Shown piece by piece: positions 7,695 through 25,987 of a DNA stretch of 64,000 nucleotides. A program made the translations under genes and the position numbers. Origin of the DNA: Chelativorans multitrophicus (GTDB lineage: Bacteria; Pseudomonadota; Alphaproteobacteria; Rhizobiales; Rhizobiaceae); the NCBI RefSeq assembly GCF_011317445.1, contig NZ_JAAAPL010000001.1, positions 1,941,001 to 2,005,000 of the forward strand, read 5' to 3'. Numbering within the stretch: the first letter of the stretch is position 1; every line of letters starts with the position of its first letter. The notes beneath the pieces were generated by a model. That model was not told the DNA's origin, ran no database searches, and was given only the letters and a program-made list of their open reading frames with translations.

Positions 7695-10004
7695 TCAGCC
7701 CGCCCGCATCTGCCGCGCTGCCTCCACCATATTGGCAAGCGCGAAGCGGACTTCCTCCCATTTGCGGGTCTTCAGCCCGCAATCGGGATTGACCCAGATC
7801 TGGCGCGGATCCAGCCCGTCCTCCGCCTTCCGCAGGAGGTCGGCCATCTCGTCGGCGGGCGGCACCCGCGGCGAATGGATGTCGAAGACGCCGGGTCCGA
7901 TATCGTTGGGATAGCGGAACGCGCGAAACGCTCGCAGAAGCTCCATCTTGGATCGCGAGGTTTCGATGGAAATCACATCCGCATCCATCGCCGCGATCGC
8001 ATCGATGATGTCGTTGAACTCCGCGTAGCACATGTGGGTGTGTATCTGGGTCTCGGGCTTCACGCCGGAGGAGGCCAGACGGAAGCACTCCACTGCCCAG
8101 TCGAGATAGGCCGGCCGCTCGGCTTCCCGCAGCGGCAGGCCTTCACGCAGCGCCGGCTCGTCGATCTGGATAACCCCGATCCCCGCTGCTTCGAGGTCGC
8201 TCACTTCGTCTCGCAACGCAAATGCGATCTGGCGGCACACCGTCTCGCGCGGCAGGTCGTCACGCACGAACGACCATTGCAGCATCGTGACGGGTCCCGT
8301 GAGCATACCCTTCACCGGCTTGTCGGTGAGCGACTGGGCATAGGTGGCCCAATCGACCGTCATCGGCTGCGGCCGGGAAACGTCACCGAAGATGATGGGC
8401 GGGCGGACGCAGCGCGAACCATAGCTCTGGACCCAGCCCTGCTTGGTGAAGGCATAGCCCGAAAGCTGCTCGCTGAAATACTGCACCATATCGTTGCGCT
8501 CGAACTCGCCATGCACGAGCACATCGATGCCGATCTCCTCTTGCCACCGGATCGCCTTCTCCGTCTCCCCCTTGAGGAAGCCATCATAACCGGCTTCGCT
8601 GAGCTCCCCCTTCGCACAGGCGGCGCGCGCCTGGCGCACCTCCGCCGTCTGCGGGAAGGAGCCGATGGTCGTGGTCGGGAATGCCGGCAGGTTCAGCCGC
8701 TCCTGCTGCAGCTTGCGCCGCTCGGAAAACGGCTCGGAACGCTTCGCCATCTCGGGCGTGACGGCGGAGAGCCGGCCAGCGACATGCGGATCATTCACGC
8801 GGGTCGAAGAAGCCCGCACGGCAAGCGCCCGTGAAGCCATGTCGATGAGGGACTGAACCAGCGAGCGGTCGGCCGACAGCGCGTGGGAGAGAATGGAGAG
8901 TTCTTCCACCTTCTGCACGGCGAAGGCAAGCCAGCTCCTGAGCTCCGGATCGACCCCGGTTTCGATCGAGAGATCCAGGGGCACATGAAGGAGGGAACAG
9001 GACGGCGCTAACTGGAATCGACCGGGATTGCCCTTCACGATCGGACCCAGCCTGTCGAGAAGTGCAGCAATGTCCGTGCGCCAGATGTTGCGGCCATCCA
9101 CGACACCCAACGAGATCACGCGCTCCTCCGGCGCCGCCGAAAGCACATCTTGAAGCTGATCCGGCGCGCGCACGAGGTCGAGGTGCAGCCCGGCGACCGG
9201 CAGGGCGGCTGCCGTTGGCAGATTGTCGCCCAGCCCGCCGAAATAGGTGGCGAGCATCAGCTTGGGACCTCCGGTCGCCGCCAGCGCGTCATAGGCGATG
9301 GTGAAAGCTCGCCGCTCCCTTTCCGTAAGGTCGAGCACGAGGCAGGGTTCATCGATCTGAACCCAGTCCGCGCCCGCCCGCAGCAGCTTGCCCAGCAATT
9401 CCGCGTAGACCGGCACCAGCCGCGGCAGGAGCTCCAGCGGGTCGCCACCGTCCCTGCGCTTGCCGAGCTTGAGAAAAGAGACCGGCCCCAGCAGCACCGG
9501 CCGCGTGTGGATTCCCTGCCGCTTTGCCTCGTCGAACTCCTCGACCGGCTTCAGCGAGGCGAGCCGGAACGTCTGATCGGCATCGAATTCCGGCACCATA
9601 TAGTGATAGTTCGTATCGAACCACTTCGTCATCTCCAGCGCCGGCACACCGGTGCCGTCATGATGCGAATGGCCGCAAGCCTCTCTTTCCTGGCTGCCGC
9701 GCGCCATGGCGAAATAGGTGTCGAGCGGCACAGCGCCGCCGGCCCAGCCGTAGATTTCAGGAATGGCGCCCAGCGTCACGGCCATATCCAGCACGTGGTC
9801 GTAAAGCGTGAAATCGTTGGACGGGATGATGCTGGCGCCTGCCGCCTTCTGCAGAGACCAGTTTTCAGCGCGGATCTTCGCGGCAGCGGCAAGAAGCTCG
9901 CCCTCCGAGCTTTCGCCCCCCCAATATGCTTCCAGCGCGAATTTGAGTTCACGGCGGCGGCCTATACGTGGCACGCCGAGCGTGGCAACGGGTATTTGTG
10001 ACAT
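7695..10004 (-). CDS. metE: cobalamin-independent methionine synthase MetE
   Basis: A full-length 769-residue 5-methyltetrahydropteroyltriglutamate-homocysteine methyltransferase, with the N-terminal barrel starting at TLGVPRIGRRRELKFALE and the catalytic C-terminal barrel. The zinc site is visible as HTHMCYAEF, a downstream conserved Glu (ISIETSRS) and NPDCGLKTRKW. It catalyses the last step of methionine synthesis without B12. The start at 10004 has AAGGGG nine nt upstream, better than the in-frame ATG 33 bp earlier. A cobalamin riboswitch and a promoter occupy its leader, so it should be repressed by adenosylcobalamin when the B12-dependent MetH can work. Confidence 0.97.
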   Translation of the reverse strand: MSQIPVATLGVPRIGRRRELKFALEAYWGGESSEGELLAAAAKIRAENWSLQKAAGASIIPSNDFTLYDHVLDMAVTLGAIPEIYGWAGGAVPLDTYFAMARGSQEREACGHSHHDGTGVPALEMTKWFDTNYHYMVPEFDADQTFRLASLKPVEEFDEAKRQGIHTRPVLLGPVSFLKLGKRRDGGDPLELLPRLVPVYAELLGKLLRAGADWVQIDEPCLVLDLTERERRAFTIAYDALAATGGPKLMLATYFGGLGDNLPTAAALPVAGLHLDLVRAPDQLQDVLSAAPEERVISLGVVDGRNIWRTDIAALLDRLGPIVKGNPGRFQLAPSCSLLHVPLDLSIETGVDPELRSWLAFAVQKVEELSILSHALSADRSLVQSLIDMASRALAVRASSTRVNDPHVAGRLSAVTPEMAKRSEPFSERRKLQQERLNLPAFPTTTIGSFPQTAEVRQARAACAKGELSEAGYDGFLKGETEKAIRWQEEIGIDVLVHGEFERNDMVQYFSEQLSGYAFTKQGWVQSYGSRCVRPPIIFGDVSRPQPMTVDWATYAQSLTDKPVKGMLTGPVTMLQWSFVRDDLPRETVCRQIAFALRDEVSDLEAAGIGVIQIDEPALREGLPLREAERPAYLDWAVECFRLASSGVKPETQIHTHMCYAEFNDIIDAIAAMDADVISIETSRSKMELLRAFRAFRYPNDIGPGVFDIHSPRVPPADEMADLLRKAEDGLDPRQIWVNPDCGLKTRKWEEVRFALANMVEAARQMRAG

Positions 10005-10077: not shown

Positions 10078-10106
10078 CCACCGGGACACCCCGCCCGTGG
10101 ACGTTC
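10078..10106 (-). promoter_or_regulatory. conserved hairpin element between riboswitch and metE (copy 1)
   Basis: A 29-nt element just 3' of the B12 box, identical at 28 of 29 positions to the element at 14633-14661 behind the nrdA riboswitch. It can form a small CGGG/CCCG hairpin with a GTGT loop. It probably belongs to the expression platform that hides or exposes the downstream ribosome-binding site. Confidence 0.6.
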
Positions 10107-10109
10107 TCG

Positions 10110-10338
10110 TCATGGCAGGTCTCCTGGCTCGCGGGTCACAGCCTCTCTCCGCCTTCCCGGGTGTCTCCAGTGGCATGTTGGAGAAGAGCTCGCCGCTCAC
10201 AGTTGCGGGGGCAGCTTCGGCATTACCCGATACATCAACCCCGAAAACCAAAACCAGCTTTCGGAAAGCGCAATAGCGCTGACGGGCGCACCGAATTCCC
10301 TCTTAGCCCCGGCGCTGAAAGACGCCGGGGACCACGAC
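10110..10338 (-). ncRNA. cobalamin (AdoCbl) riboswitch in the metE leader
   Basis: Read on the minus strand, the leader contains the standard B12-element landmarks in order: AAGAGGGAATTCGGTGC, the core GCCCCCGCAACTGTGAGC, CCACTGG followed by GGGAAGGC, and the B12 box AGCCAGGAGACCTGCC (10114-10129). A GC-rich stem (CCCCGGCGT...) opens the element. Adenosylcobalamin binding is expected to switch off metE, the known logic for B12-independent isozymes. Boundaries are approximate. Confidence 0.95.
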
Positions 10339-10344
10339 GTGTGC

Positions 10345-10373
10345 AGATTTGCTCAAACGAGGTTGAGAGTCAA
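10345..10373 (-). promoter_or_regulatory. sigma70-like promoter of the metE riboswitch transcript
   Basis: A -35 box TTGACT (10368-10373) and a -10-like AAATCT (10345-10350) are separated by exactly 17 nt. Transcription would start at the 5' edge of the riboswitch. The spacer holds an inverted repeat, CTCAA...TTGAG (10352-10367), which could be an operator for a methionine or other regulator. The pairing of boxes is seen; promoter activity is inferred. Confidence 0.5.
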
Positions 10374-10430: not shown

Positions 10431-11540
10431 TCAATCCCAACTGAGCGCCCCTCCGTTCTGGTATTCGATCACCCGCGTCTCGAAGAAGTTCTTCTCTTTC
10501 TTGAGGTCCATCGCTTCCGACATCCATGGGAACGGGTTTTCCGTCTCTGGGAACACCGGCGGGAGCCCAAGCTGGGCGCAACGCCGGTTGGCGATGAAAT
10601 GCATATACTGCTCGCACTGCCCGGCATTGAGGCCGAGAAAGCCACGCGGCATGGTATCGCGCCCATAGGCCGCCTCCAGCTCGGCGGCGTCCTTCAACAT
10701 GCGGCGCAACTCCTCCTGAAATTCAGGCGTCCACAGATGCGGGTTCTCGTGCTTGATCTGGTTGATGACATCGATGCCGAAATTCAAATGGATCGACTCG
10801 TCGCGCAGGATATACTGGTACTGCTCGGCAATCCCCACCATTTTGTTGCGCCGGCCGAGCGAGAGGATCTGCGCGAACCCAGTATAGAACCACATCCCCT
10901 CGAAAATCACGTAGAAGGCCACGAGATCGCGCAGGAAGGCCTGGTCGGCTTCGGGTGTGCCGGTGCGGAAATTCGGGTCGTCCAGATGGCGTGTGTATTC
11001 CAGCGCCCAGGCCGCCTTGTCGGTGATGGACGGCACCTCGCGATACATGTTGAACAGCTCGCCCTCGTCCAGGCCCAGGCTTTCCACAATGTATTGGAAT
11101 GTGTGCGTGTGCACCGCCTCCTCGAAAGCCTGGCGCAGGAGATACTGCCGGCATTCGGGATTGGTCAGGTGGCGGTAGATCGCAAGCACGATGTTGTTGG
11201 CCACCAGCGATTCGGAAGCCGCGAAGAAGCCGAGATTGCGCTTGACCATGCGCCTCTCGTCCTCCGTCAGCCCGTCGCGCGACTTCCACAGCGCGATGTC
11301 GGCCTGCATGGAAACCTCAGTCGGCATCCAATGATTGTTGCACCCCGACAGATATTTTTCCCATGCCCAGCGGTATTTCAGCGGTAGCAGCTGGTTTACG
11401 TCCGCCCGCGCATTGATCATGCGCTTGTCGTCCACCGACACGCGCCCCGCCCCCCGTTCGATTGTGCCGAGGCCGGTGGCGTCTGTCTCGCCGGCGGAGG
11501 GCGATTGGGAAGGATCGGTATATTCGTTCCAAGTCAGCAT
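10431..11540 (-). CDS. nrdB: ribonucleotide reductase beta subunit, class Ic type (Phe replaces radical Tyr)
   Basis: A 369-residue ferritin-like small subunit. Metal ligands read as Glu110, Glu141, His144, Glu214, Glu248 and His251. The position of the tyrosyl radical (Y122 in E. coli) is Phe148, in [12 protein letters not shown]. The first ligand is Glu instead of the usual Asp. The pattern and spacings match the Chlamydia class Ic enzyme, which uses a Mn(IV)/Fe(III) cofactor instead of a tyrosyl radical. It supplies the oxidant for NrdA in making deoxyribonucleotides under air. The start at 11540 has GGAGAA upstream. It follows nrdA by 147 bp that contain a repeat element, and should be controlled by the same riboswitch. 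Confidence 0.95.
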
Positions 11541-11687: not shown

Positions 11688-14552
11688 TTACTGGCACGCC
11701 TCGCAATCGGGATCGTCGATGGCGCACGCCTTTACGCCTTCCAATTCGAAGGCCGCCGGCTGCGGCATCACCGCCACGGCATTGAGCTTTCCGTCGGCGC
11801 GCTTCAGCGTGGACTTCTCCACATGTGTGGCGGACCTGGAGCGCAGATAATAGGTGGTCTTCAGCCCCTTCCTCCATGCCAGCCGATAGAGCTCGTCAAG
11901 CTTCTTGCCGGAAGGGTTGGCGATGTAGAGGTTGAGCGACTGCGCCTGGTCGATCCATTTCTGCCGGCGCGAGGCGGCCTCGATCAGCCAGGCTGGGTCG
12001 ATCTCGAAGGCCGTGGCGTAGAGCGCCTTCAAATCGTCCGGAACGCGGTCGATCTGGCCGAGCAAACCGTCATAGTATTTAAGGTCCGAGACCATCACCT
12101 CGTCCCACAACCCACGCGCTTTGAGATCATGCACGAGCGCGGCATTCACCACCGTGAAATCGCCCGACATGTTCGATTTCACGAACAGGTTCTGATACGC
12201 AGGCTCGATCGACTGGCTGACACCGCAGATATTGGAAATGGTCGCCGTCGGCGCGATCGCCATCGTGTTGGAGTTGCGCATGCCGTGCTCCACCACGCGG
12301 GCGCGCAGGCTTTCCCAGTCCAGCGTCGTGCCGCGATCCATGCCGTCGACACCGCGGGATTCGGCCACGAAGCTAAGGGAATCGATGGGCAGCACGCCCT
12401 TCGACCACAACGAACCCTCAAAGCTCGCATAGGCGCCACGCTCCTTGGCAAGCTCCACGGACGCGGAAATCGCGTGGTAAGCGATCGCCTCCATCGAGCG
12501 GTCGGCAAACTCCACCGCCCCTTCCGAAGCATAGGGCAATCTCAGTGTTTGCAGCGCATCCTGGAATCCCATGAGGCCGAGCCCCACCGGCCGGTGGCGC
12601 AGGTTCGAGCGCCGCGCCTCGGGAATGGTGTAGAAATTGATGTCGATGACATTGTCGAGCATGCGCATCGCGGTCGCGACCGTTCGCGCGAGCTTCTCCA
12701 TGTCCAGCCCCTTCTCGCTCACATGCGCGGCGAGATTGATTGAGCCGAGATTGCAGACGGCCACCTCGTCCTTCGAGGTGTTGAGCGTGATTTCCGTGCA
12801 GAGATTCGAAGAGTGCACCACGCCCGCATGCCGCTGCGGCGAGCGCAGGTTGCATGGGTCCTTGAAGGTGATCCACGGATGTCCCGTCTCGAACAGCATG
12901 GTGAGCATGCGCCGCCACAGATCCACCGCACGCACTTGTCTGAAGACGCGGATCTCGCCACGCGCTGCCCTCGCCTCGTATTCTTCATAGGCCGCCTTGA
13001 AGGCGGGGCCATAAAGATCATGCAGGTCGGGCGTTTCGTCGGGCGAGAACAGCGTCCATTCTCCATCCGCCTCCACGCGCTCCATGAAGAGATCCGGCAC
13101 CCAGTTGGCCGTGTTCATGTCATGCGTCCGGCGCCGGTCGTCGCCTGTGTTCTTCCTGAGGTCCAGGAACTCCTCTATGTCGACGTGCCATGTTTCGAGA
13201 TAAGCGCACACCGCGCCCTTGCGCTTGCCGCCCTGGTTGACGGCAATCGCCGTGTCGTTAGCCACTTTCAGGAAGGGCACGATGCCCTGGCTCTTGCCGT
13301 TGGTGCCCTTGATGCGCGCTCCGAGTCCGCGCACCGGGGTCCAGTCATTGCCGAGCCCGCCTGAATATTTTGCCAGGAGCGCATTGTCCTTTACGGCCTT
13401 GAAGATGCCGTCGAGATCATCGGAAACGGTCGTCAAAAAGCAGGAGGAAAGCTGCGGGCGCAGCGTGCCGGCGTTGAAAAGCGTCGGCGTCGAGCACATG
13501 AAATCGAAGGTGGAAATGAGATCGTAAAATTCGATCGCCCGCGCCTCGCGATCGATCTCACGCAGGGCAAGGCCCATCGCCACACGCATGAAGAAGGCTT
13601 GCGGAAGCTCGTAGCGCACCCCGTCCTCGTGCAGGAAGTAGCGATCGTAGAGCGTCTGGAAACCCAGATATTGGAACCGAAGATCGCGCTCCGGCTTGAG
13701 CGCCGCACCCAGCCTCTTGAGGTCGAAGCGGCCAAGCTCCGGATCGATCATCTCCGCCTGGATACCGGCCGCAATAAACCCTTCGAAATACGCCGGATAA
13801 CGCTCGACCATCTCGGCCTGTGTCGCTTGTGTCGGCCGTCCCTCGACGAAAGTCAGCGCTTCGCGGCGCAGCTTGTCGAGAAGCAGCCGTGCGCTGACCT
13901 GGCTATAGTTCGGCTCCGTCTCCACGAGCGTACGGGCGGCAAGGATCGGCGCCAGCGAAAGCTCGTCCAGCGTGATGCCGTCATAGAGGTTGCGCTGTGC
14001 CTCCGACAGGATCGCCTCAGCCGAGACCGCCTCCAGCCCCTGGCAGGCTTCCTCGACAACCGCCGTGAGCCGCGCAATATCCAGCGGCGTTTTGCTGCCG
14101 TCCTCCAGCATCACTTGTAGGATCGGCTGCGCGGCGTTTTCGGCGGTCTTCGTGGCGGCCCGCTCACGTGCCCGTTCCTCGCGATAGAGCACATAGGCCC
14201 GTGCAACCTTGTGATGCCCGTCGCGCATCAGGGCAAGTTCCACCTGATCCTGAATTTCCTCGATATGGAAGGTACGGCCCGCTTCGTTACGGCGCGTCAG
14301 CGCGCCCACGACCTGCTCCGTCAGATCCTCGACCACCTCGTGCACGCGGCGTGAACCCGCCGCTACCGATCCCTCCACGGCAAGGAACGCCTTTGTGAGA
14401 GCAATGGCGATTTTGCTCGGATCGAACGGCGTGACGGAGCCGTTGCGGCGTATGACGCGATAGGCAGACTCCGCCTCGCGCTCGACCGGCGCGGGTGTAA
14501 AGACCGGTCCGGCGGCCGATCCATTGGAAAGCTGAGTGGCAGTCGCTGACAT
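11688..14552 (-). CDS. nrdA: ribonucleoside-diphosphate reductase alpha subunit
   Basis: A 954-residue class I catalytic subunit. The N-terminus carries an ATP-cone near residues 31-125 (YRVIRRNGSVTPFDPSKI) and a second cone-like region near 145-235, used for allosteric on/off control. The barrel follows, with the FNAGTLRPQLSSCF cysteine, NLCTEI and VCNLGSINL motifs of the active site. A CEAC pair close to the C-terminus is the redox tail reduced by thioredoxin or glutaredoxin. The ATG at 14552 is preceded by GGGGGT; a frame extension to 14663 runs into the riboswitch region and is not real. It is first in an nrdA-nrdB operon behind a cobalamin riboswitch. The long N-terminal extension fits the class Ic partner NrdB. 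Confidence 0.95.
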   Translation of the reverse strand: MSATATQLSNGSAAGPVFTPAPVEREAESAYRVIRRNGSVTPFDPSKIAIALTKAFLAVEGSVAAGSRRVHEVVEDLTEQVVGALTRRNEAGRTFHIEEIQDQVELALMRDGHHKVARAYVLYREERARERAATKTAENAAQPILQVMLEDGSKTPLDIARLTAVVEEACQGLEAVSAEAILSEAQRNLYDGITLDELSLAPILAARTLVETEPNYSQVSARLLLDKLRREALTFVEGRPTQATQAEMVERYPAYFEGFIAAGIQAEMIDPELGRFDLKRLGAALKPERDLRFQYLGFQTLYDRYFLHEDGVRYELPQAFFMRVAMGLALREIDREARAIEFYDLISTFDFMCSTPTLFNAGTLRPQLSSCFLTTVSDDLDGIFKAVKDNALLAKYSGGLGNDWTPVRGLGARIKGTNGKSQGIVPFLKVANDTAIAVNQGGKRKGAVCAYLETWHVDIEEFLDLRKNTGDDRRRTHDMNTANWVPDLFMERVEADGEWTLFSPDETPDLHDLYGPAFKAAYEEYEARAARGEIRVFRQVRAVDLWRRMLTMLFETGHPWITFKDPCNLRSPQRHAGVVHSSNLCTEITLNTSKDEVAVCNLGSINLAAHVSEKGLDMEKLARTVATAMRMLDNVIDINFYTIPEARRSNLRHRPVGLGLMGFQDALQTLRLPYASEGAVEFADRSMEAIAYHAISASVELAKERGAYASFEGSLWSKGVLPIDSLSFVAESRGVDGMDRGTTLDWESLRARVVEHGMRNSNTMAIAPTATISNICGVSQSIEPAYQNLFVKSNMSGDFTVVNAALVHDLKARGLWDEVMVSDLKYYDGLLGQIDRVPDDLKALYATAFEIDPAWLIEAASRRQKWIDQAQSLNLYIANPSGKKLDELYRLAWRKGLKTTYYLRSRSATHVEKSTLKRADGKLNAVAVMPQPAAFELEGVKACAIDDPDCEACQ

Positions 14553-14632: not shown

Positions 14633-14661
14633 CCGCCGGGACACCCCGCCCGTGGACGTTC
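14633..14661 (-). promoter_or_regulatory. conserved hairpin element between riboswitch and nrdA (copy 2)
   Basis: The 29-nt counterpart of 10078-10106, differing by one base, again directly 3' of the B12 box and about 80 nt before the start codon. Conservation at two unrelated genes suggests it is a functional part of the switch and not chance similarity. Confidence 0.6.
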
Positions 14662-14669
14662 AATGCTCA

Positions 14670-14847
14670 TCACGGCAGGTCTCCTGGCTTGCAGGTCATC
14701 GCTTCTGTCAGGCCTTCCCAGCGCTCTAGGAGCACCAGTGGCAATACGCGACACAAGCTCGCTGCTTACAGTTGCGGGGGCAGCGCCGGCCTCACACCGG
14801 CTTCCCTCTTAAGCTCTCGACCCGAACGACTCGACAGCACCGTGATG
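14670..14847 (-). ncRNA. cobalamin (AdoCbl) riboswitch in the nrdA leader
   Basis: Minus-strand landmarks in order: AAGAGGGAAGCCGGTGTGA, the core GCCCCCGCAACTGTAAGC, CCACTGG followed by GGGAAGGC, and the B12 box AGCCAGGAGACCTGCC (14674-14689). This is a complete B12 element in front of nrdAB. The known biology is that AdoCbl represses class I reductase when a B12-dependent class II enzyme (NrdJ) can serve. nrdJ is not in this window. Edges are approximate. Confidence 0.95.
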
Positions 14848-14853
14848 GGCTAT

Positions 14854-14883
14854 ATTTAGTAGCCCCGGCACATCTGATGTCAA
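14854..14883 (-). promoter_or_regulatory. sigma70-like promoter of the nrdAB riboswitch transcript
   Basis: A consensus -35 box TTGACA (14878-14883) lies 18 nt before a -10-like CTAAAT (14854-14859). This places the transcript start right at the 5' end of the riboswitch. A possible NrdR box was not found by eye. The -10 match is weak, so confidence is moderate. Confidence 0.5.
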
Positions 14884-25454: not shown

Positions 25455-25987
25455 GACGATTCTCCTTGGCTGATCGGCAGACAATCGGCGCATGTGCCAA
25501 ATTTTTCAAGCGCCCGAAAATTTGGCGTTGATTGTGACATCGAACGCGCCTATATCCCGCCTTGCCCAAAGTCGCACGTGCCTGTGGGTGTCCGCCGGGC
25601 CTCGAAATGGCGAGGAAACCGGTACGGTACCTGGACCTAACCGCTCCAGTCGATCTTACGGCCAACCGAAGATCGAGGACATCTTGAAGCAACGACGGTG
25701 CGGGCCTTTCTGGTGTCTGCCGGTTGTCCAAAGACCGGGGTTACTGAAGAGGCACACCTTCATTGCCGGCAGTGCGGAGGGACATCCCATCCAAAGCTGA
25801 GGCAGACAAAGCGAGCCTTCGCCTTGCGGCGGAAGCTCATCGCAATGCGCAAGACGCGTCAACGGTCCGGTGCTCTCCACCCTCCGGCCGCGGAAACGCA
25901 AAGGCGCATCCTTTGTCCACCGCGGGCCGCAAGGCTCGCAGAGCTTGAGCTTTCTTGAGCGGCCTTGGCCGCCGACGGAGGGAAATG
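25455..25987. other. 533-bp stretch without a recognisable gene
   Basis: The gap between the amidase start and ornithine decarboxylase holds only short frames on both strands with Arg/Pro-rich translations and no family match. It must contain the divergent promoters of both genes. I saw no clear riboswitch or strong terminator. The part 25850-25950 is GC-rich and may be a degenerate intergenic repeat. Confidence 0.4.

What the first reader, a model, noticed from the sequence alone, without database searches (positions are those of the whole stretch)
10431..11540. NrdB is a class Ic ribonucleotide reductase: Phe148 replaces the radical Tyr
The sequence shows Glu110, Glu141, His144, Glu214, Glu248, His251 as ligands and Phe148 exactly seven residues after Glu141, where E. 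coli has Tyr122. In the Chlamydia enzyme the same spacings hold (Glu-31-Glu-3-His, Phe at +7, Glu at +73, Glu at +34, His at +3) and it uses a Mn(IV)/Fe(III) cofactor. So this organism probably makes DNA precursors with a Mn/Fe radical-free oxidant. The manganese/iron reading is inferred from the family.
Basis: partly seen in the sequence, partly recalled or inferred. Interest (0 to 1): 0.7.

Follow-up and report, generated by a model that had tools for sequence, protein, structure and literature searches.

The report
Manganese-iron DNA-precursor enzyme under vitamin-B12 control
This bacterium carries a known kind of DNA-building-block enzyme that very probably runs on manganese plus iron, and its genes sit behind an RNA switch that should turn them on only when vitamin B12 is scarce, as a stand-in for a B12-dependent enzyme it also has.

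Summary
Window 10431-11540, minus strand, encodes a 369-aa NrdB with Glu110, Glu141, His144, Glu214, Glu248, His251 and Phe148 at the aligned radical position. It is 61% identical to Chlamydia class Ic R2 and 87% to the solved Saccharopolyspora R2 (6y2n), both Glu/Phe. In 163 aligned proteins Glu and Phe always go together (96), Asp and Tyr likewise (67). Class Ic by sequence is well supported; Mn(IV)/Fe(III) is inferred. Whether Phe arose once or twice is unresolved.

A full cobalamin riboswitch lies 104 nt upstream of nrdA, and a second lies before the B12-independent metE, downstream of nrdB. The genome also has B12-dependent NrdJ and MetH. Among Glu/Phe loci with readable nrdA leaders, 73 of 74 have the riboswitch; 0 of 16 assessable proteobacterial Asp/Tyr loci do. 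Most likely a B12-repressed Mn/Fe backup reductase. B12 control of nrdAB has precedent in Streptomyces. An ordinary family member in an informative setting.

The parts
10431..11540 (-). nrdB, 369-aa radical-generating subunit, class Ic by sequence
11211..11213 (-). codon of Glu110, first metal ligand (Asp in Tyr-bearing relatives)
   Evidence: coordinates computed by hand from the ATG at 11540
11097..11099 (-). codon of Phe148, at the position of the radical Tyr
   Evidence: coordinates computed by hand from the ATG at 11540
10788..11120 (-). span holding the other ligands Glu141, His144, Glu214, Glu248, His251
11688..14552 (-). nrdA, catalytic subunit, 954 aa from the ATG at 14552, two ATP-cone stretches
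14657..14859 (-). cobalamin riboswitch aptamer in the nrdAB leader, 104 nt before the nrdA ATG
   Evidence: RF00174, 130.6 bits, E 1.4e-32, full length
10097..10351 (-). second cobalamin riboswitch aptamer, in the metE leader
   Evidence: RF00174, 132.4 bits, E 4.4e-33, full length
7695..10004 (-). metE, B12-independent methionine synthase (start taken as the ATG at 10004)
   Evidence: TIGR01371, 1103 bits, cut-off 929.95

Best explanation
nrdA-nrdB encode a class Ic ribonucleotide reductase. NrdB binds one Mn and one Fe through four Glu and two His; reaction with oxygen (or peroxide) gives a Mn(IV)/Fe(III) centre, which does the job of the missing tyrosyl radical and oxidises the active-site Cys of NrdA through the usual Trp/Tyr relay. 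The operon is expressed only when adenosylcobalamin is low: when B12 is plentiful it binds the leader riboswitch, shuts nrdAB (and, through a second riboswitch, metE), and the cell uses B12-dependent NrdJ and MetH. So the Mn/Fe enzyme is the B12-sparing, oxygen-dependent backup reductase. Shown: sequence features, gene order, riboswitch aptamers, presence of NrdJ/MetH, conservation in relatives. Inferred: metal identity, co-transcription, repression by B12, who works when.
For: Residues and ungapped match to Chlamydia R2c. Complete coupling of Glu/Phe (96) versus Asp/Tyr (67) in 163 rows. PMC4118035 (passages) says Mn/Fe R2 proteins have four Glu whereas class Ia/Ib have Asp first, and names W51, Y222 and F197 in Chlamydia R2c; here W71, Y243, F218. 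NrdA has SSNLC, YYLR and C-terminal CEAC motifs (roles recalled). Two full-length riboswitches. The genome has one NrdB, this NrdA and one NrdJ (NF005736 2369 bits, cut-off 1737), no NrdD, and MetH. Riboswitch in 73 of 74 readable nrdA leaders of the Glu/Phe loci, 83-138 nt from the projected nrdA start. NrdJ over cut-off in 35 of 40 genomes holding Glu/Phe loci. The one readable leader of that set without a riboswitch (L081) lies in a genome (G647, a MAG) with no NrdJ over cut-off, and G046/L177 likewise has neither.
Against: No metal measurement of this protein. PMC4118035 (2014, passages) says no R2c had been shown to hold Mn/Fe in vivo, and that four Glu also occur in di-iron monooxygenases. 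The relay residues W71, Y360, F218, Y243 also occur in most Asp/Tyr rows, so they do not speak for Ic. The expression platform is not identified: the leader folds no better than shuffles (z -0.13). Three genomes with a riboswitch have no full NrdJ hit (G612 with a fragment, G615, G646; the first and last are MAGs by title, G615 is the Erythrobacter tepidarius genome). L081's lack of NrdJ could be MAG incompleteness. One Tyr-type operon on a cyanobacterial plasmid (L158) also has a cobalamin match upstream (57.4 bits), so the riboswitch does not track Phe strictly.
Confidence: 0.85

Rival explanations
1. Class Ic in sequence but di-iron or mixed in the cell: Phe148 with an Fe/Fe centre used at low activity, or a mixed population.
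For: PMC4118035 (passages) reports that in Chlamydia R2c the Mn/Fe cofactor forms efficiently only if Fe is substoichiometric, and that a significant share of Fe/Fe forms in aerobic loading; metal identity cannot be read from sequence.
Against: The same review states R2c is highly active only with the mixed-metal cofactor; Glu110 and Phe148 are together in 96 of 96 Glu- or Phe-bearing rows. An Nramp-type transporter is encoded in the genome, so Mn uptake is possible.
Confidence: 0.1
2. Independent loss of Tyr: the alphaproteobacterial-type Glu/Phe group arose from Tyr-bearing proteins of the NF005550 family separately from Chlamydia, so the likeness to class Ic is convergent (and the cofactor might differ). 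This does not exclude the best explanation; it concerns origin.
For: It is 65.9% identical to Tyr-type L090 but 60.9% to Chlamydia; a tree joining this group with 11 Tyr-type rows costs only 2.0 log units, p-AU 0.424.
Against: The best tree unites all Glu/Phe rows (1 change; 77% of bootstrap trees; support 76/57), and the Asp-to-Glu ligand switch accompanies Phe in every row.
Confidence: 0.3
3. Ordinary class Ia di-iron tyrosyl-radical enzyme, misread.
For: The nearest non-Phe relatives examined are Tyr-bearing; the family model is named only 'subunit beta'.
Against: Phe at the aligned site in an ungapped alignment.
Confidence: 0.01

Closest known systems
Chlamydia trachomatis class Ic R2 (PDB 1syy, 4d8f, 4m1h, 4m1i)
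   Same: All six ligands, Phe, spacing, relay residues, C-terminal tail; 60.9% identity over 335 columns
   Different: Here the enzyme sits beside a class II NrdJ and behind a cobalamin riboswitch; the Chlamydia locus was not examined here
Saccharopolyspora erythraea R2 (PDB 6y2n; organism from PMC7467353, passages)
   Same: Glu/Phe, 87.0% identity over 339 columns
   Different: From an actinomycete; its locus and cofactor were not examined here; the passages read call it only R2
Tyr-bearing NrdB proteins that also pass the NCBIfam model NF005550
   Same: Same family model; 62.8-65.9% identity for L090, L099, L107, but 39.9% for L127
   Different: Asp as first ligand and Tyr at the radical site; no cobalamin riboswitch in 16 of 16 assessable proteobacterial loci
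Streptomyces coelicolor nrdABS, class I reductase under a B12 riboswitch (Borovok 2006 as cited in PMC4991794, passages read)
   Same: Class I nrdAB behind a cobalamin riboswitch, with class II NrdJ as the other reductase
   Different: Described there as class Ia; different lineage; that paper reports B12 control of its transcription, here it is only predicted

Membership tests
Class Ic ribonucleotide reductase, subunit R2c | Phe in place of the radical Tyr | tested here: met
   Phe148 on Chlamydia Phe127, no gap
Class Ic ribonucleotide reductase, subunit R2c | First carboxylate ligand is Glu, all four carboxylates Glu | tested here: met
   Glu110, 141, 214, 248; rule from PMC4118035 passages
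Class Ic ribonucleotide reductase, subunit R2c | Positions of W51, Y222 and F197 of Chlamydia R2c (not specific to Ic) | tested here: met
   W71, Y243, F218; but also in 67, 51 and 61 of 67 Asp/Tyr rows
Class Ic ribonucleotide reductase, subunit R2c | Groups with known R2c proteins in a tree | tested here: inconclusive
   Best tree yes with 76/57 support; alternatives not rejected, p-AU 0.424 and 0.161
Class Ic ribonucleotide reductase, subunit R2c | Mn(IV)/Fe(III) cofactor, Mn in site 1, no tyrosyl radical | not testable with these tools
   needs metal analysis and EPR/Moessbauer
Class Ia NrdB | Radical Tyr and Asp as first ligand | tested here: not met
   Phe148, Glu110
R2-like ligand-binding oxidase (R2lox) | Score over a curated R2lox model | tested here: not met
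   best R2lox model 55.5 bits, cut-off 194
Cobalamin riboswitch RF00174 | Full-length aptamer match over gathering score in a leader | tested here: met
   130.6 and 132.4 bits against 31.5, positions 1-189
Cobalamin riboswitch RF00174 | Expression controlled by adenosylcobalamin | not testable with these tools
   platform not identified; fold z -0.13

The most novel reading that the evidence does not exclude
In a branch of Alphaproteobacteria (mostly Hyphomicrobiales) the Mn/Fe class Ic reductase is not a pathogen's or extremophile's enzyme but a vitamin-B12-sparing backup: cells switch DNA-precursor synthesis between a cobalt enzyme (NrdJ) and a manganese/iron enzyme (NrdAB) through a riboswitch, in some genomes side by side with the MetH/MetE switch, and lineages that lose NrdJ lose the riboswitch.
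Probability: 0.7. Interest if true: 0.5.

Novelty: new member of a known kind. Interest (0 to 1): 0.36.

Why it matters
PMC4118035 (passages) describes R2c enzymes as found mainly in extremophiles and pathogens, and discusses iron limitation or nitric oxide as reasons for Mn/Fe. The conserved pairing found here (class Ic nrdAB + cobalamin riboswitch + class II NrdJ, in some relatives next to riboswitch-controlled metE) suggests another reason in environmental bacteria: cobalt/B12 economy. It points to free-living hosts in which to ask whether class Ic really uses Mn/Fe in the cell, which that review called not yet shown in 2014. The protein itself is an ordinary member of a known family.

Tried and rejected
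Plus-strand reading at the finding's coordinates: not the gene. Class Ia and R2lox membership: rejected on residues and scores. nrdA start at TTG 14663 (the longest ORF): rejected, because it lies inside the riboswitch; ATG 14552 gives 954 aa and a leader distance of 104 nt, within the 83-138 nt of 74 related leaders (73 of the 80 genome loci plus the Aureimonas plasmid locus L164; distances are to the nrdA start projected from the alignment with the window's NrdA). Search for an expression platform by folding: no signal over shuffles. A firm answer on one or two origins of Glu/Phe: not reached. Spread in the class: of 337 genomes drawn evenly from the class only 3, the own one included, had a match at E 1e-60, so the gene is patchy there. 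Relay residues as a mark of class Ic: dropped, they are shared with most Asp/Tyr rows.

Limits: the 80 genome-contig loci are the best matches to this protein out of a capped list, hence biased to Glu/Phe; all 80 are Glu/Phe. The Asp/Tyr rows came from a sample of 299 genomes of the phylum plus four plasmid or phage genes. Trees used 88 of 155 rows and 61 of 163 rows, chosen by me to thin near-copies and, in the second, long branches. L124 and L156 are the same gene; L015 and L017 lie in one genome. Riboswitch count: of 80 loci, 73 have it before nrdA; 4 are cut before the nrdA start (L025, L033, L066, L080), L017 has no adjacent nrdA, L037 cannot be read upstream, L081 lacks it. Of 20 loci, 19 are Asp/Tyr and none had a match; 16 of the 19 show the nrdA start and upstream DNA (L173 and L174 have no nrdA in the stretch, L184 ends within the nrdA 5' end). 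Papers: no paper linking class Ic to a cobalamin riboswitch was seen in the listings (open-access library only; searches list at most 15 and 10 papers). I read only passages of PMC7467353, PMC8463856, PMC9531940, PMC4118035, PMC8123684, PMC9936198, PMC6759758, PMC4991794, PMC2211319, PMC4009431; all others only as search listings. One paper search of the ten and two genome searches of the twelve were left unused; no structure was predicted.

Full report
WHAT IS THERE. The gene is on the minus strand, 11540 down to 10431, 369 aa. Pfam gives Ribonuc_red_sm (315.6 bits); NCBIfam gives NF005550, 'ribonucleotide-diphosphate reductase subunit beta' (684 bits, cut-off 309). The PDB comparison puts it closest to 6y2n (699.5 bits), which PMC7467353 (passages) identifies as the R2 subunit of Saccharopolyspora erythraea, then to the Chlamydia trachomatis R2 entries 1syy, 4d8f and 2ani (about 470 bits; that these are C. 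trachomatis entries is recalled, supported for 4m1i by PMC9936198 passages); the next chain listed is at 155.7 bits. The window's relatives point to a Chelativorans-like member of Phyllobacteriaceae (best locus L002, 93% identity; taxonomy).

CLASS Ic TEST. I aligned 155 proteins (152 loci, the query, two PDB chains), then 163. At the two diagnostic positions there are only two states: Glu110+Phe148 (96 of 163) and Asp+Tyr (67 of 163), with no mixture. The Glu/Phe rows include Chlamydia, S. erythraea, the 80 named loci and three haloarchaeal plasmid genes. PMC4118035 (passages) states that Mn/Fe R2 proteins have four Glu while class Ia and Ib have Asp first. The residues fall on Chlamydia E89, E120, H123, F127, E193, E227, H230, and W71, Y150, F218, Y243, Y360 on W51, Y129, F197, Y222, Y338. 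Those last five are not diagnostic: among the 67 Asp/Tyr rows W71 and Y360 are in 67, F218 in 61, Y243 in 51, Y150 in 42. The partner NrdA has SSNLC (581), YYLR (901), SSCFL (369), CNLGSINL (600) and a C-terminal CEAC motif (their roles are recalled from the E. coli enzyme) and two ATP-cone stretches.

PHYLOGENY. With the two diagnostic columns left out, the best trees need one change between the states. Support for one Glu/Phe group is weak (76/57; 77% of 200 bootstrap trees). Holding the alphaproteobacterial-type Glu/Phe rows together with 11 Tyr-bearing rows instead is not rejected (p-AU 0.424), nor is putting Chlamydia and haloarchaea outside a larger set with 12 more Tyr-bearing rows (p-AU 0.161). 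By identity the query is somewhat nearer to the Tyr-bearing relatives checked (62.8-65.9% for L099, L158, L107, L090) than to Chlamydia (60.9%).

Rfam finds two full-length cobalamin riboswitches in the window: 14859-14657 (130.6 bits), 104 nt before the nrdA ATG at 14552, and 10351-10097 (132.4 bits), before metE. The same 26 bases (GAACGTCCACGGGCGGGGTGTCCCGG) occur at the 3' end of both aptamer matches and just beyond. The genome has four such riboswitches; one of the other two precedes a TonB-dependent receptor followed by periplasmic-binding, FecCD-type permease and ABC genes, as in B12 uptake operons (the B12 reading is inferred). The genome has one PF00268 protein, the NrdA here, a 1274-aa NrdJ (NF005736, 2369 bits, cut-off 1737), no NrdD, and MetH besides MetE. 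So for both reactions it has a B12-dependent and a B12-independent enzyme, and both B12-independent ones lie behind a riboswitch; the 10-kb stretch around nrdJ has none (L172). The stretch around metH was not searched on its own, but none of the four places lies there.

CONSERVATION. All 80 named loci were put through Rfam. 73 have the riboswitch 83-138 nt before nrdA. Of the other seven, four are cut, one has no adjacent nrdA, one is unreadable upstream and one (L081) lacks it: 73 of 74 assessable. The Aureimonas plasmid locus L164 also has it. Of 19 Asp/Tyr proteobacterial loci none had a match, 16 of them assessable. NrdJ over the curated cut-off is in 35 of 40 genomes holding Glu/Phe loci (42 loci were given, L015 and L017 share a genome, L011 was not held and not searched). 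The five without are G612 (fragment only), G615, G646, G647 (= L081) and G046 (= L177); the last two also lack the riboswitch, the first three have it (L005, L008, L076). G612, G646 and G647 are MAGs by title. In one search, 8 of 8 alphaproteobacterial Glu/Phe genomes (own included) have a second large subunit of NrdJ size, against 6 of 19 Asp/Tyr genomes with a second large subunit of any kind; five of those six have an assessable leader (L175, L181, L186, L188, L189) without a riboswitch. metE lies near nrdAB in 16 of the 80 loci as far as the flanks reach: downstream behind a riboswitch (L002, L058, L060, L069), divergent behind one (L021, L034, L046, L056, L071, L073, L075, L078), or in other arrangements (L012, L020, L035, L055).

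MECHANISM AND STATUS. Shown: sequence, gene order, aptamers, paralogue set, conservation. From established knowledge of class Ic (PMC8463856, PMC4118035, passages): Mn in site 1, Fe in site 2, Mn(IV)/Fe(III) after reaction with oxygen. Inferred: that this protein does the same, and that adenosylcobalamin represses the operon. [quoted passage not shown] The listings showed me no paper that ties a class Ic reductase to a cobalamin riboswitch; most subscription papers were not searchable.

VERDICT. It is a new member of a known kind. The added value is the predicted B12 control, which gives the Mn/Fe enzyme a clear probable role in free-living bacteria.

Noticed in passing
window 25564-25709 (+) and 25718-25862 (+): An alphaproteobacterial ar45 sRNA match (164.9 bits) directly followed by a speF leader match (76 bits), 8 bases apart; possibly one leader transcript.
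   Followed up: no
L014 (Acidobacteria MAG by title): Carries an nrdAB locus with NrdB 89% identical to the window's, riboswitch included: wrong binning or recent transfer.
   Followed up: no
PDB 6y2n versus window 10431-11540: An actinomycete R2 is 87% identical to this alphaproteobacterial one, much nearer than expected from the species: probable horizontal transfer of class Ic genes.
   Followed up: partly
L159, L160, L161 (haloarchaeal plasmids): Plasmid-borne nrdAB with Glu/Phe, so class Ic by sequence in haloarchaea.
   Followed up: partly
L158, 15-159 (Acaryochloris plasmid): Tyr-type nrdAB on a plasmid typed as conjugative, with a weaker cobalamin riboswitch match (57.4 bits) about 0.9 kb upstream and cobW downstream.
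   Followed up: no
L017 (same genome as L015): A second Glu/Phe nrdB copy without an adjacent nrdA, with a weak cobalamin riboswitch match (40.3 bits) downstream.
   Followed up: no
L170, 8476-8687 (-): Another cobalamin riboswitch of the genome; between it and a 1571-aa minus-strand frame that looks like an autotransporter lie only short frames on that strand (up to 81 aa), none identified.
   Followed up: partly
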